64,000 bases of DNA from Chryseobacterium paludis. GTDB taxonomy: Bacteria > Bacteroidota > Bacteroidia > Flavobacteriales > Weeksellaceae. The notes under the pieces were generated by a model that saw only the letters and a program-made list of their open reading frames with translations, did no database searches and was not told the origin of the DNA. The stretch is taken from positions 4,710,501 through 4,774,500 of the forward strand of contig NZ_CP099966.1 of NCBI RefSeq assembly GCF_025403485.1. Direction: 5' to 3'. Every line of letters begins with the position of its first letter. The stretch's first letter is position 1. This document shows, one piece after another, positions 4,716-25,513 of the stretch. Made by a program: the position numbers and the translations under genes.

Positions 4716-5624
4716 ATGAGTAAAAATGTTAGTTTAGAGTCTGCCGGATTACGGTTTCGGGAGGCGATGCAAAAAGAAAGTCCTCTTCAGATTGTAGGAG
4801 CGATCAATGCTAATCATGCATTGTTGGCACAGCAGGCAGGTTTCAATGCCATTTATCTTTCAGGAGGAGGGGTTGCTGCAGGTTCTTTAGGAGTTCCCGA
4901 TCTGGGAATAACAACCCTTGAAGATGTATTAATCGATATTCAACGGATAACCAACGTATGTGATCTGCCATTATTGGTGGACGTGGATACGGGCTTTGGT
5001 CCTTCAGCATTTAATGTGGCAAGAACTGTAAAATCCTTAATTAAAGCTGGAGCTGGGGCTTTACATATTGAAGATCAGGTAGGAGCAAAACGTTGTGGAC
5101 ACCGTCCTGGTAAAGAAGTAGTGAGTAAAGATGAAATGGTAGACCGCTTAAAAGCTGCGGTTGATGCAAGGACAGATGAAAATTTCGTTATCGGAGCAAG
5201 AACAGATGCTTTTGCGAATGAAGGATTAGAAAGAACATTGGAAAGAGCAGTTGCTTACAAAGAAGCCGGGGCAGATTTTATATTTGCGGAAGCTGTTCCT
5301 GATTTAAGCTATTACCAAAAATTTGTCGATGCAACAGGTATTCCCGTATTAGCCAATATCACCGAATTTGGAATGATCAGAATGTACACTGTTGATGAAC
5401 TTAAAAGTGCTGGAGTAGGTTTGATTTTATATCCACTTTCGGCCTTCCGTGCAGCGAATAAAGCTGCTCAGAATGTTTATGAACATATCCGAAAGGATGG
5501 CACTCAGGTTAATGTACTTGATACTATGCAAACCCGCGACGAGCTTTACAAAAGTATCGGCTATCACGACTATGAACAAAAATTAAATAACCTATTTCAA
5601 AAGAACAAAAATATCAATGAATAA
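4716..5624 (+). CDS. prpB: 2-methylisocitrate lyase
   Basis: Last step of the methylcitrate cycle: it cleaves 2-methylisocitrate into pyruvate and succinate. The 302-residue protein belongs to the PEP mutase/isocitrate lyase superfamily. The signature KRCGH is at residues 125-129, with C127 the expected catalytic cysteine; '[10 protein letters not shown]' (86-95) carries the Mg-binding aspartates and '[11 protein letters not shown]' follows. An in-frame ATG at 4665 would add 17 residues unlike any PrpB, so the start at 4716 ([11 protein letters not shown]) is chosen. It is the first gene of prpBCD behind the B12 riboswitch, and its end overlaps prpC by 8 bp (ATGAATAA). Confidence 0.93.
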
Positions 5625-22468: not shown

Positions 22469-23815
22469 TTACAAAAGTTTACCGGTTAAGAAAAGTCCGG
22501 CTACGGAAAAGTAAATAATTAATCCTGTTACGTCCACTAACGTAGCTACAAAAGGGGCGGATGAGGTAGCGGGGTCAAGTTTTAATTTTTTTAATATAAA
22601 AGGGACCATAGAACCTGAAAGTGTTCCCCAAAGTACAATTAACACTAAAGAAACCGCGACACTTAAACCTACATATACCCAATGGGCACCGTAACTGAAG
22701 AAGCCTGCTTCATGCCAGATCATAATTCTTAAAAAGCCAATAATACCAAGGATTCCTCCTAAAAAGAGGCCTGTAAAGATTTCTTTCTTCATGACATACC
22801 ACCAGTCCTTTAAGCCTATTTCCTGCAGTGCCATAGCTCTAATGATAAGCGTTGCGGCTTGTGAGCCTGAATTTCCACCACTGGAAATAATTAATGGAAC
22901 AAACAGTGCCAATACAACTGCCTTTTGAATTTCGTCTTCAAAATATCCCATTGCTGATGCTGTGAGCATTTCAGAAAAGAATAATATGATCAACCACATT
23001 CCTCTCTTTTTTACCATTTCGATAAGCGAGGTTTGTGTATAAGGTAAATCTAATGCTTCAAGACCCCCAAATTTCTGGATGTCTTCCGTGTTTTGTTGTT
23101 CGATCTGGTCAAGGATGTCATCAATAGTTACAATCCCTACAAGGACGCCTGATTCAGTGATAATAGGAAGTGCAGTACGGTCGTATTTTTCAAAATATGT
23201 AACGGCATCCTCTTTTGAGGTCATCGTTGTTATAGCCACAAAATGATTATCAGTGAGATCAGATACCAAAGTGTCTTCCTCTGCTAATAATAAACTTCCT
23301 ACTGCTAAGTCATCAATTAAACGGTTTCTTTCATCCACCACATAAAGATGGTTCATTGTTTCAACCCTTTTTCCAACCTTCTTGATCTGTTGCAGACATT
23401 TCTTTACTGTCCACTCTTTACGGATCTGGATGTAGTAGGGGGTCATTAATCGGGCAATGGAATCAGAATGGTATCCCAAAAGTTTCAATGCAATCCTTCT
23501 TTCCTGTGGGTTAAGATGATTGATGGAATATTTAATAAGTTCATCCGGAAAATCTTCAAACAGTGCCGTCCTGTCATCTGGAGTCATCGCATTCAGGATC
23601 TCTGAAACATCATCACTTCCAATACTTCTGATAGTTTCTTCCTGGAAGTCCGGATCGAGATGAGAGAATACCTCTGCTTTGTATTCTTTGGGAACTTTCA
23701 AAAATGCCAATAGCCTCTCATCAGCAGGAAGATCGCTAAGAGTTTCGGCAATGTCGGCAGGATTTAAGATAAGTTCGTCAGTATAATTCAAAACGTGAGA
23801 TTTTTGGATACGCAA
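22469..23815 (-). CDS. mgtE: magnesium transporter MgtE
   Basis: Mg2+ channel/transporter of 448 residues in the inner membrane. Domains in order: the cytosolic MgtE N domain (about 20-120, helical repeats such as '[20 protein letters not shown]'), a CBS pair (about 130-250; '[18 protein letters not shown]'), and five membrane helices (about 280-448) with the signature '[20 protein letters not shown]'. Full-length. The BtuF-like gene follows on the same strand with a 19-bp gap. Confidence 0.92.
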
Positions 23816-23927
23816 AAATAATTCAATTTTTTAGAATTGCCCAATGATGTGGCAAAATTAAGGATTTATTAAAGTTTTATTCTTGTGATCTGTGGTAATT
23901 GGCATTGATCTATAGGGGATATTAATG

Positions 23928-23955
23928 AAAAAACATCTGTGGGGGACAGATGTTT
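23928..23955 (-). terminator. terminator of the Cys-rich peptide operon
   Basis: AAACATCTGT (23931-23940) pairs with ACAGATGTTT (23946-23955) around a 5-nt loop. On the minus strand the stem runs into TTTTTTC, just after the last peptide gene. Confidence 0.85.
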
Positions 23956-23982
23956 AAATTAGTTTAAAAAAAAATAAGTTTT

Positions 23983-24150
23983 TTATTCAAGCGGTTCGCA
24001 AACAGGAAAGGGAGATACCATACAAATTCCTCCACTGCAGCATTCTCCAGCCCAGCATTGAGTTGAATCTTTGCACTTTCTGATAAGCCCGCTGCCATTT
24101 ATTTCTTTTTGCATCAGCCTGTCCAGTTTTTTTAAATTTACATTTTTCAT
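23983..24150 (-). CDS. Cys-rich double-glycine-leader peptide (third of three)
   Basis: 55-residue peptide not found by standard length cut-offs. The leader MKNVNLKKLDRLMQKEINGS ends in Gly-Ser, a variant of the Gly-Gly cleavage site. The core holds six cysteines at 26, 32, 37, 38, 43 and 51 (pattern C-x5-C-x4-CC-x4-C-x7-C). It is 15 bp behind the second peptide and is the most divergent copy, with a longer tail. Leaders of this type are cut and exported by peptidase-containing ABC transporters; none lies in the window. Role unknown; bacteriocin-like by leader only. Confidence 0.75.
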   Translation of the reverse strand: MKNVNLKKLDRLMQKEINGSGLIRKCKDSTQCWAGECCSGGICMVSPFPVCEPLE

Positions 24151-24165
24151 GGTATTTGATTTAAA

Positions 24166-24309
24166 TTAATCTTCAATACAAGCTTGCGGTACACAGATTC
24201 CATTGCAGCACCATGCTCCAAAACATTGTGCGTGGCTGGTGCATCTTTTAAGAGCTCCGCCATTAATTGCTTTTTGTTCTTGTCTGTTAAGTTTTTTTAG
24301 ATTTTTCAT
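24166..24309 (-). CDS. Cys-rich double-glycine-leader peptide (second of three)
   Basis: 47-residue peptide: the leader MKNLKKLNRQEQKAINGG with the canonical Gly-Gly end at 17-18, and a core with six cysteines at 23, 29, 34, 35, 39 and 44 (C-x5-C-x4-CC-x3-C-x4-C). The leader is almost identical to that of the first peptide, while the core residues between the cysteines vary, which is the usual picture for secreted peptide families under diversification. It lies between two siblings, 35 bp after the first and 15 bp before the third. Confidence 0.8.
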   Translation of the reverse strand: MKNLKKLNRQEQKAINGGALKRCTSHAQCFGAWCCNGICVPQACIED

Positions 24310-24344
24310 AAGGTTTTAATATAAAGTTAAACTGATAGGTGTTA

Positions 24345-24488
24345 TTAATCTTCAAAGCACGCATCCAGAACGCAAACCCTGTGGCAGCAAAATCCTCCAA
24401 AACACTGTGAGTTGTCAGTGCATTTTATAATTCCACCTCCATTAATTGTTTTTTGTTCTTGTCTGTTGAGTTTTTTTAAATTTTTCAT
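24345..24488 (-). CDS. Cys-rich double-glycine-leader peptide (first of three)
   Basis: 47-residue peptide: the leader MKNLKKLNRQEQKTINGG, then a core with cysteines at 23, 29, 34, 35, 39 and 44. The spacing C-x5-C-x4-CC-x3-C-x4-C is the C-C-CC-C-C order seen in inhibitor cystine knot (knottin) peptides, so three disulfides are plausible after export. It is the first gene of the peptide operon. The paralogues share length, leader and an acidic C-terminus (ED). No immunity or modification gene is adjacent. Confidence 0.8.
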   Translation of the reverse strand: MKNLKKLNRQEQKTINGGGIIKCTDNSQCFGGFCCHRVCVLDACFED

Positions 24489-24616
24489 AGTGTAAAGTAT
24501 TTGGTTTTAATGTGTTACTAAAATAATGAAAATATTTATATTATTCACTCATTTGTAGAGTTAATTGTTTCCTGCTAATCTTTATCAGATGAGAATTATG
24601 GTATAAAAAACAAAAC

Positions 24617-24635
24617 ACCCGCAAAAATTGCGGGT
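24617..24635 (-). terminator. minus-strand terminator
   Basis: ACCCGCAA (24617-24624) pairs with TTGCGGGT (24628-24635). On the minus strand it is followed by GTTTTGTTTTTT. It sits after the decayed small ORF at 24674-24815. Confidence 0.8.
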
Positions 24636-24673
24636 ATAATAATGAATTTAAAAAATGAAGAGATTTATTTTGT

Positions 24674-24815
24674 TTAATTAAACTTCGGGTAGGTGGTGAG
24701 TACGATATACTCTTTTTCGACATGATCTATCAGTACATCTAAAATGCTTAGTTACATCTCAAGCTGTAACACTAGGGTTTCAATGCTTGCTTCGGGTTGG
24801 TTTTTGATTTTTCAT
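24674..24815 (-). pseudogene. decayed small gene
   Basis: The ATG at 24815 starts MKNQKPTRSKH and stops. A one-base shift gives QPEASIETLVLQLEM, then a TAA (24752-24754), and the same frame continues as LSILDVLIDHVEKEYIVL and TTYPKFN to TAA 24674-24676, shortly before a terminator. One frameshift and one nonsense change would explain this as a former ~46-codon gene. The product is unknown. Confidence 0.3.
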
Positions 24816-24955
24816 GGTCATTAGTTTGTTAGTATGAAACTAAATTAATCAAAATATTTGAATTATTCACAAATAAATTGAATTATTTTTATCAAAATTT
24901 ATTAAAATTTTGATTTCTAATGAGATGTGTGGAATGTAGTGATAGTGATGTAAAA

Positions 24956-25513
24956 CTAAAAACCAGATTCTGAAGAAGGTTTTAGTTTTCTTAATTTTTT
25001 CAGAATACTTTTTATTGCTCCGTTGGTTCCTATCTTGATAGAGTTCTCTGCTGAACCTAAAAGACGCATATTTTTACGGTAAGTATCATAATCCGATTCT
25101 GTAATAAAATTCCCCGATGCATCAAAAAGTTTCATACTTACAATAACCTGATTGGAGAAAACATACTTTCCAATTCCTACTTTGAAATATTTTACCTTAG
25201 GAACGATCGCAAAATCAGCATCATTGTTGATGCAGTAGTCAGCAATGGTTTGGGTATCTACACTATCAAAAGGGATCTGGACTTCAGTTCGAAGCATTTT
25301 ATTTTTCTTATAGCCGCTTAAATGATCTGAGACAGCACTAAAAAATGCATGATTGGTAGGCTCTTTTATTTCTTCAATATCAGGTTCTACTTCAGGATTA
25401 AAGTATAGAACTTTTTTTATTTTGTCCTCTGAAGCACCTTTTTGTGCTTTTACTGAAGCGATACCGATCAGTAAAAGAGTAGAAGCCGTGGTAAAAAGTA
25501 AAATTTTTCTCAT
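24956..25513 (-). CDS. exported protein of unknown function
   Basis: 185 residues with a Sec signal peptide (about 1-23, ending 'ASVKAQ') and a soluble mature part. The order 'DYCINNDADFAIVPKVKYFKVGIGKYVFSNQVIVSMKLFDASG' (about 92-134, cited in part) suggests an alpha/beta unit like the anticodon-binding-like domains of TolB/CsgG-type periplasmic proteins, but no firm family can be named. The gene diverges from rpsO, with a promoter region of about 170 bp between them. Confidence 0.6.
   Translation of the reverse strand: MRKILLFTTASTLLLIGIASVKAQKGASEDKIKKVLYFNPEVEPDIEEIKEPTNHAFFSAVSDHLSGYKKNKMLRTEVQIPFDSVDTQTIADYCINNDADFAIVPKVKYFKVGIGKYVFSNQVIVSMKLFDASGNFITESDYDTYRKNMRLLGSAENSIKIGTNGAIKSILKKLRKLKPSSESGF

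What the first reader, a model, noticed from the sequence alone, without database searches (positions are those of the whole stretch)
23983..24488. Operon of three double-glycine-leader peptides with a knottin-like cysteine pattern
Three tandem genes (47, 47 and 55 codons), missed by length cut-offs, share the leader MKNLKKLNRQEQK.INGG or a variant of it and cores with six cysteines in the order C-C-CC-C-C (first two: x5, x4, x3, x4 spacing). The leader points to export by a peptidase-type ABC transporter; the core resembles inhibitor cystine knot peptides, which are hardly known from bacteria. They could be secreted toxins, signals or bacteriocins.
Basis: partly seen in the sequence, partly recalled or inferred. 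Interest (0 to 1): 0.8.

Follow-up and report, generated by a model that had tools for sequence, protein, structure and literature searches.

The report
Bacterial knottin-like exported peptide array
A soil-type bacterium carries an array of genes for tiny, probably exported, disulfide-rich proteins whose predicted shape resembles the knottins of plants and venoms, and elsewhere in its genome lies an export and disulfide-forming machine that could make them.

Summary
Three minus-strand genes (P1 24345-24488, P2 24166-24309, P3 23983-24150) encode double-glycine-leader peptides with six cysteines, C-x5-C-x4-CC-x3/4-C-x4/7-C. In 38 of 38 named Chryseobacterium/Weeksellaceae loci the array sits beside the same mgtE gene; cysteines are nearly invariant and selection is purifying. 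P1 and P2 pass the cut-off of NCBI's leader_Chryseo family ("bacteriocin-like protein"), so the leader is known; the core matches no family over its cut-off. AlphaFold2 models (pLDDT 79.7 and 74.9) resemble cystine-knot peptides most, P3 clearly, P2 less so; Foldseek E-values are not significant and disulfide pairing is untested. The genome has 35 leader hits over cut-off; 45 of 47 leader peptides examined have even cysteine counts. A hub elsewhere encodes a C39 peptidase-ABC exporter, HlyD and a VKOR-thioredoxin fusion with a degenerate C39-like N-terminus. That fusion occurs in 61 of 64 leader-positive genomes and 6 of 133 leader-negative ones; in relatives knottin-pattern peptides are encoded inside the hub. 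Best reading: knottin-like miniproteins exported and oxidised by this hub in trans. Activity is unknown; no immunity gene was recognised. New variant of a known kind (compare bacteroidetocins).

The parts
24345..24488 (-). P1, first gene of the array: 18-residue GG leader plus 29-residue core, Cys spacing 5-4-0-3-4
   Evidence: ORF; NF047798 36.3 bits, cut-off 23.5
24166..24309 (-). P2, second gene: GG leader plus 29-residue core, Cys spacing 5-4-0-3-4
   Evidence: ORF; NF047798 34.8 bits; AlphaFold2 model of GG+core, pLDDT 79.7
23983..24150 (-). P3, third gene: variant leader ending Gly-Ser, core with Cys spacing 5-4-0-4-7
   Evidence: ORF; same type is found with the other genes in relatives; AlphaFold2 model pLDDT 74.9
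24518..24548 (-). Promoter-like array motif GTGAATAAT-N-TATTTTAG, 29 nt before the P1 start codon
   Evidence: One of exactly two matches in the whole own genome, control 0; relaxed motif in 22 of 38 named loci, 24 hits, all on the array strand, 18 of them 21-30 nt before a leader gene
24840..24870 (-). Second copy of the array motif, 24 nt before a very short ORF
   Evidence: The other of the two genome matches (window positions)
24780..24815 (-). Very short ORF (11 codons and stop) behind the second motif; possibly a decayed array member (inference)
   Evidence: Read from the sequence; not listed as an ORF of 25 aa or more
23931..23955 (-). Terminator-like hairpin after P3 (10 pairs; also reads as a terminator on the + strand)
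   Evidence: 4 terminator-like sites found in 23800-24960 against 0.4 in shuffles
22469..23815 (-). mgtE, conserved downstream neighbour (context, not part of the system)
   Evidence: Pfam MgtE; beside the array in 38 of 38 named loci
24956..25513 (-). Conserved upstream neighbour of unknown function (context)
   Evidence: No Pfam family at E 1e-5; present in 37 of 38 named loci, L124 being cut by its contig end

Best explanation
The array encodes precursors of small disulfide-rich miniproteins with an inhibitor-cystine-knot-like fold. The leader docks on the C39 peptidase domain of an ABC exporter encoded elsewhere in the genome, is cut after Gly-Gly (or Gly-Ser/Gly-Ala), and the core leaves through the exporter and its HlyD partner. 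A membrane VKOR-thioredoxin fusion of the same exporter locus, probably drawn to precursors by its degenerate C39-like N-terminal domain, oxidises the six cysteines to three disulfides. The products are most likely secreted inhibitors or toxins used against competitors, predators or their enzymes. Shown from sequence: the genes, their conservation and constraint, the hub, its co-occurrence and physical linkage with leader peptides. Inferred: export of this array in trans, disulfides, fold, activity (activity is the weakest step, about 0.35).
For: Leader family match; 35 leader hits over cut-off and two C39 exporters in the genome. Hub L036: HlyD, leader peptide, C39 exporter, VKOR-thioredoxin. 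45 of 47 leader peptides with even Cys counts. Six relay cysteines of the fusion invariant in 17 of 17 sequences. Leader family and fusion together in 61, leader only 3, fusion only 6, neither 127 of 197 family genomes; outside the own genus 13, 3, 6, 125. Of 18 fetched fusion loci 15 hold the exporter (one as a fragment) and 16 hold GG peptides; knottin-pattern peptides lie inside in L172 and L177-L180. Six Cys kept in 174 of 177 distinct array-type peptides (after setting aside 2 internal-start artefacts and 2 distant ones). N-terminal domain against C39: hhalign probability 78.6 and 59.8, 13 control segments at most 0.4. Model of P3: the first six of 61 Foldseek matches are cystine-knot peptides. 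Published precedent: GG peptide, thiol oxidoreductase and exporter in bacteroidetocin loci (PMC6671954, passages).
Against: Foldseek E-values are not significant (0.47 at best for P3, 1.7 for P2); for P2 the first two matches are Dkk4 and nicastrin and two scorpion toxins of another fold appear. hhalign in global mode gives the C39 comparison a probability of only 17.4. Array leaders have Gln or Ala at -7 in 104 of 109, where Leu at -7 matters for PCAT1 (PMC6959990, passages). The array is not next to the hub in this genome, so export in trans is inferred. The co-occurrence test ignores phylogeny. No expression data.
Confidence: 0.62

Rival explanations
1. Same export and oxidation, but the core is not an inhibitor cystine knot: another six-Cys fold, for example Dickkopf-N- or WAP-like, with other disulfide pairs.
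For: Sub-threshold Pfam hits: Dickkopf_N E 0.0071 (L178 peptide), WAP E 0.034 (L138 peptide). First Foldseek match of the P2 model is the Dkk4 N-terminal region, E 1.7; Dkk entries also appear for P3.
Against: No entry named as a WAP domain in the 11 rows for P2 or the 50 of 61 rows shown for P3; P3's first six rows are cystine-knot peptides. The best PDB sequence for the core profile is conotoxin GXIA, E 0.056. Closeness of the spacing to WAP domains is recalled.
Confidence: 0.25
2. The peptides are ordinary antibacterial class II-type bacteriocins and the disulfide framework is incidental.
For: NCBI names the leader family bacteriocin-like; bacteroidetocins have the same GG leader, four Cys and an oxidoreductase; a paralogue scores 23.0 against 27.1 for Bacteriocin_IIc.
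Against: No immunity gene recognised by Pfam among the eight flanking genes (small unknown immunity proteins could be missed); chromosomal array in fixed synteny, low dN/dS, mean net charge -0.74 over 93 distinct cores.
Confidence: 0.3
3. Protease inhibitors that shield the cell's surroundings or act on hosts, prey or predators.
For: Nearest structures are mostly squash trypsin inhibitors, and a carboxypeptidase inhibitor also appears; carboxypeptidase A inhibitor is P2's best Pfam hit, E 0.014, below cut-off. Steady inheritance fits a lasting role.
Against: The knottin scaffold serves many functions; no inhibitory loop was identified; the Pfam hit is below cut-off.
Confidence: 0.25
4. Secreted signals or matrix components, as for some cyanobacterial GG peptides needed for biofilm formation.
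For: GG-motif small secreted proteins in Synechococcus biofilms (PMC4997328, abstract start in the listing).
Against: Many diverged copies per genome with conserved disulfide framework; no receptor or regulator gene recognised beside the array.
Confidence: 0.12
5. Non-coding or decaying sequence: the ORFs are chance.
For: Short ORFs; three relatives have lost one cysteine and a very short ORF lies behind the second motif (sequence).
Against: dN/dS 0.094 and 0.178 over 71 pairs; cysteine, synteny and motif conservation.
Confidence: 0.01

Closest known systems
NCBIfam NF047798 leader_Chryseo, 'bacteriocin-like protein'
   Same: 18-residue leader; P1 and P2 are over the curated cut-off; several dozen members in this genome
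   Different: The model covers the leader only and says nothing of the core, fold or oxidase; P3 is not matched
Bacteroidetocins (proposed class IIf bacteriocins of Bacteroides), PMC6671954, passages read
   Same: GG leader, Cys-containing core, C39 exporter and thiol oxidoreductase in one locus; mobility change on reduction reported
   Different: 15-residue leaders, 42-aa cores with four cysteines, described as related to class IIa; killing shown there, not here; here six Cys in knottin order and an array away from the exporter
Inhibitor cystine knots (squash trypsin inhibitors, conotoxin GXIA)
   Same: Six Cys in the order C-C-CC-C-C; best-scoring structures for the P3 model
   Different: From plants and animals; no significant sequence or structure E-value; export through a GG leader here
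NCBIfam NF047792 CCPGW family putative bacteriocin
   Same: Shares a leader-like start and a CC in the core region by alignment range
   Different: 14.8-17.5 bits against a cut-off of 80
Chryseoviridins (graspetides of Chryseobacterium), PMC8939145, passages read
   Same: Same genus; multiple tandem precursors; GG cleavage by C39 peptidases discussed for such peptides
   Different: ATP-grasp lactone/lactam peptides; no ATP-grasp gene was recognised beside the window array; the words VKOR, knottin and disulfide do not occur in that paper's main text

Membership tests
NF047798 leader_Chryseo | Score over curated cut-off 23.5 bits | tested here: met
   P1 36.3, P2 34.8 bits; P3 not reported at E up to 1, so not met for P3
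NF047792 CCPGW family | Score over cut-off 80 bits | tested here: not met
   17.5, 15.7 and 14.8 bits
Inhibitor cystine knot (knottin) | Six Cys in the order C-C-CC-C-C with short loops | tested here: met
   P1-P3; 108 of 109 leader peptides in 38 named loci
Inhibitor cystine knot (knottin) | Disulfides 1-4, 2-5, 3-6 forming a knot | not testable with these tools
   Model coordinates not available; only single Cys losses in nature
Inhibitor cystine knot (knottin) | Fold: small antiparallel sheet with cystine knot | tested here: inconclusive
   AlphaFold2 pLDDT 79.7 and 74.9 with a two-strand hairpin; cystine-knot peptides rank first for P3 (E 0.47-0.96) and are about half of the 11 rows for P2 (E 1.7 or more)
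Inhibitor cystine knot (knottin) | Match to a curated knottin sequence family | tested here: not met
   No Pfam family over cut-off
Class II bacteriocin / bacteroidetocin | GG leader with C39 exporter | tested here: met
   Leader; two C39 exporters in the genome, none beside the array
Class II bacteriocin / bacteroidetocin | Antibacterial activity and immunity | not testable with these tools
   No immunity gene recognised in the flanks by Pfam
Lanthipeptide | LanC-type cyclase in the genome | tested here: not met
   PF05147: 0 matches in the own genome; LanB and LanM were not searched separately
Graspetide | ATP-grasp ligase with the precursor | not tested
   Only the eight flanking genes of the array were checked, none ATP-grasp; the genome was not searched
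WAP / Dickkopf-N | Pfam score over cut-off | tested here: not met
   WAP 14.9 against 20.8 (L138 peptide), Dickkopf_N 17.1 against 25 (L178 peptide); none for P1-P3

The most novel reading that the evidence does not exclude
Chryseobacterium runs a venom-like programme: dozens of different cysteine-rich miniproteins per genome, true knottins among them, share one leader and are fed to one export hub in which a leader-binding (dead C39) VKOR-thioredoxin oxidase folds them on the way out. This would be a general, leader-guided bacterial factory for disulfide-knotted peptides.
Probability: 0.35. Interest if true: 0.85.

Novelty: new variant of a known kind. Interest (0 to 1): 0.62.

Why it matters
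Knottins are prized drug and pesticide scaffolds known mainly from plants, fungi and animals (recalled). A bacterial genus that makes arrays of them, with an export and oxidation locus, would offer a genetically tractable source and possibly a production route. It would also make testable how Bacteroidota put disulfides into exported peptides, and whether a dead peptidase domain hands precursors to an oxidase.

Tried and rejected
Lanthipeptide reading: no LanC in the genome. CCPGW or a Pfam knottin family: below cut-offs. Wider spread of this core: 35 of 197 family-level genomes, all own genus; 29 of 346 order-level genomes, 27 own genus and two weak matches with a stop inside. Sigma-70 promoter scan: 3 sites against 5.9 in shuffles, uninformative. 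Pairing from natural Cys losses: only single losses. Positive selection between orthologues: not seen. The leader-plus-core search of the genus (137 of 148 genomes) was set aside because the leader drives it. Phage or mobile origin was not searched. Papers: no hit for six phrasings of bacterial knottin/cystine knot or for Chryseobacterium with 'bacteriocin-like protein'; listings for VKOR with GG peptides held nothing that I recognised as joining the two, but bacteroidetocin loci have a thiol oxidoreductase. The library lacks most subscription journals.

Limits of counts. The 47 peptides are the 51 matches less four (three without a leader, one longer start of the same gene); the leader model itself gave 56 hits at E up to 1, so 47 is not all. 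The expression missed some array peptides, for example L115:4827-4976 and a five-Cys gene of L133. The table was typed, with 50 own-genus genomes read from their lists; the three leader-only genomes have one weak hit each. Alignments A2, A3 and A5 were chosen for the six-Cys pattern, so their invariant cysteines are by selection; searches are the fairer tests, and one search used a model built from A5. Cys codons were kept out of the dN/dS because identical by construction. My notebook says the ISL-6 peptides are 100% identical; in fact P3 differs at two residues. My note says the weak PDB hits are all cystine knots; in fact scytovirin and fd gene 3 protein rank first for P2 and scytovirin for P1.

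Full report
1. The observation. The window holds three minus-strand ORFs, P1 24345-24488, P2 24166-24309 and P3 23983-24150. P1 and P2 share MKNLKKLNRQEQK[T/A]INGG and the spacing C-x5-C-x4-CC-x3-C-x4-C. P3 has a longer leader that ends in Gly-Ser and the spacing C-x5-C-x4-CC-x4-C-x7-C. The genes are 35 and 15 nt apart and a terminator-like hairpin follows P3.

2. Known leader, unnamed core. P1 and P2 pass the curated cut-off of NCBIfam NF047798 leader_Chryseo, whose description is bacteriocin-like protein; P3 does not appear for it. No Pfam family is over its cut-off; the best sub-threshold hits are carboxypeptidase A inhibitor for P2 (E 0.014) and LEAP-2 for P1 (E 0.086).

3. A large set in one genome. 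The window lies in a 5.05-Mb single-contig genome. The leader model gives 56 hits at E up to 1, 35 over cut-off; among 14 control genomes 2 had hits, none over cut-off. Of 47 leader peptides read at these places 45 have an even number of cysteines (binomial p 1.6e-11 against one half, paralogy ignored), cores hold 14.2% cysteine and leaders none, and 7 of 26 six-cysteine peptides have the knottin pattern against 0.01 by shuffling. Even counts are what disulfide-bonded peptides should show (inference).

4. Conservation. A close alignment brought 41 named loci. The nearest is Chryseobacterium sp. ISL-6, where P1 and P2 are identical and P3 differs at two residues. In 38 of 38 Chryseobacterium or Weeksellaceae loci (L112-L149) the array lies beside the same mgtE gene, and in 37 the upstream neighbour is present too (L124 is cut by its contig end). 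The other three loci (L150-L152) had no match to any of the flanking genes tested. A search for leader peptides that did not ask for cysteines found 109, of which 108 have the six-Cys pattern; the other is a different peptide beyond mgtE. This search missed some members. A profile scan of all held loci found 174 distinct six-Cys members, 3 with a cysteine lost, 2 artefacts of an internal start and 2 distant Tenacibaculum peptides. dN/dS is 0.094 in leaders and 0.178 in the non-Cys core over 71 pairs: real, constrained genes with no sign of an arms race between orthologues. A core-only profile found 35 of 197 family-level genomes, all in the own genus (35 of the 50 own-genus genomes listed), and 29 of 346 order-level genomes, 27 in the own genus and two weak matches with a stop. 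The precise core is therefore a family of this genus, as far as these samples show.

5. An array-specific upstream element. The motif GTGAATAAT-N12-22-TANTTTAG occurs exactly twice in the whole genome, with none for the reversed control: 29 nt before P1, and 24 nt before a very short ORF at 24780-24815 that may be a decayed member. A relaxed form occurs 24 times in 22 of 38 named loci, always on the array strand; 18 of the 24 lie 21-30 nt before a leader gene, five had no start found by my script and one precedes another reading frame.

6. The machine. The genome has two C39-type exporters. One (L036) lies with HlyD, a leader peptide (22.4 bits, just under the cut-off) and a 501-aa protein with VKOR and thioredoxin domains. 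The six cysteines at 174, 186, 253, 256, 365 and 368 of that protein are invariant in 17 of 17 aligned sequences, as a complete VKOR-to-thioredoxin relay would need (role recalled). Its first 110 residues or so resemble the C39 domain in local profile comparison (probability 78.6 and 59.8 with two sets, against at most 0.4 for 13 control segments); a forced global comparison gave only 17.4; the part lacks cysteine in the own-genome protein, so it cannot be a working C39 peptidase. In 197 family-level genomes the leader family and this protein occur together in 61, leader alone in 3, protein alone in 6, neither in 127; outside the own genus 13, 3, 6 and 125 (Fisher p 1e-11, phylogeny not corrected). 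Of 18 loci fetched around the protein (chosen by it), 15 hold the exporter within the stretch, one of them as a fragment, and 16 hold GG peptides; in L172 (another genus) and L177-L180 peptides with the C-C-CC-C-C order are encoded in the same stretch. No LanC was found in the genome, and the eight flanking genes of the window array show no tailoring, transport or immunity gene of a peptide by Pfam.

7. The fold. AlphaFold2 gives the P2 core a mean pLDDT of 79.7 and the P3 core 74.9, both with a short hairpin around the CC pair and the fifth cysteine. Foldseek lists 11 PDB matches for P2, Dkk4 and nicastrin first, with squash trypsin inhibitors (three rows), an atracotoxin, conotoxin GXIA and a cyclotide among the rest and two scorpion toxins; all E 1.7 or more. 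For P3 it lists 61, 50 of them shown; the first six rows are engineered cystine knot 2.5F, conotoxin GXIA, EETI-II (three rows) and MCTI-A, E 0.47-0.96, probability 0.77-0.85. Such E-values are weak, as expected for 31-39 residues, and no coordinates were on hand to measure cysteine distances. The best PDB sequence for the core profile is GXIA, E 0.056; single-sequence searches put scytovirin first for P1 and P2 and a theraphotoxin for P3, E 0.22-1.2. A Dickkopf- or WAP-like arrangement is a live rival for the pairing.

8. How it most likely works. Leader docking, cleavage and export by a C39 exporter follow from established work on such transporters. One caution: the array leaders have Gln or Ala at -7 in 104 of 109, where Leu at -7 and -12 mattered for PCAT1 (PMC6959990, passages); Leu/Ile/Met at -12 and Ile/Val at -4 are conserved. 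Oxidation by the VKOR fusion is inferred from co-occurrence and gene order. Precedent: bacteroidetocin loci hold a GG peptide, a thiol oxidoreductase and an exporter, and those peptides change mobility on reduction (PMC6671954, passages). Activity is unknown: cores near neutral to acidic (mean net charge -0.74 over 93 distinct cores) argue against a cationic membrane-active peptide; the lack of a recognised immunity gene and stable inheritance argue against a classical bacteriocin; the fold would suit a protease inhibitor. I commit to secreted inhibitors or toxins, at about 0.35 for that step.

9. Novelty. GG leader, exporter and oxidase are known together in Bacteroidota. The knottin-like core, its arrays, and the link of a C39-like VKOR-thioredoxin protein to the leader_Chryseo family did not turn up in the ten paper searches made (listings, with passages of five papers), in a library that lacks most subscription journals. 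I rate it a new variant of a known kind.

Noticed in passing
window 24780-24870 (-): Second copy of the array motif followed by a very short ORF starting MKNQK; looks like a decayed array member.
   Followed up: partly
L036:9273-10778 (-), own genome C1:4115275-4116777: VKOR-thioredoxin fusion with a C39-like N-terminus, tied to leader peptides across the family; NCBIfam gives it no name (one spurious sub-cut-off hit).
   Followed up: partly
L006 and L044, own genome about C1:4252200-4253750: A second large array of leader peptides, mostly with six cysteines in another pattern.
   Followed up: no
L039, own genome about C1:1621400-1622700: A cluster of leader peptides with a divergent, longer leader (KGKKLNKRELRTITGG type) and mostly four cysteines.
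   Followed up: no
L050:5534-9066 (-), own genome near C1:4662321: Second C39 exporter, next to a protein with a sub-threshold JmjC match; its cargo is unknown.
   Followed up: no
L150 (Tenacibaculum caenipelagi), about position 5000: GG-leader peptide with six cysteines in the same C-C-CC-C-C order but longer loops, outside this family of cores.
   Followed up: no
L133, L105, L099: Array members that have lost one cysteine each (one by truncation), probably decaying copies.
   Followed up: no
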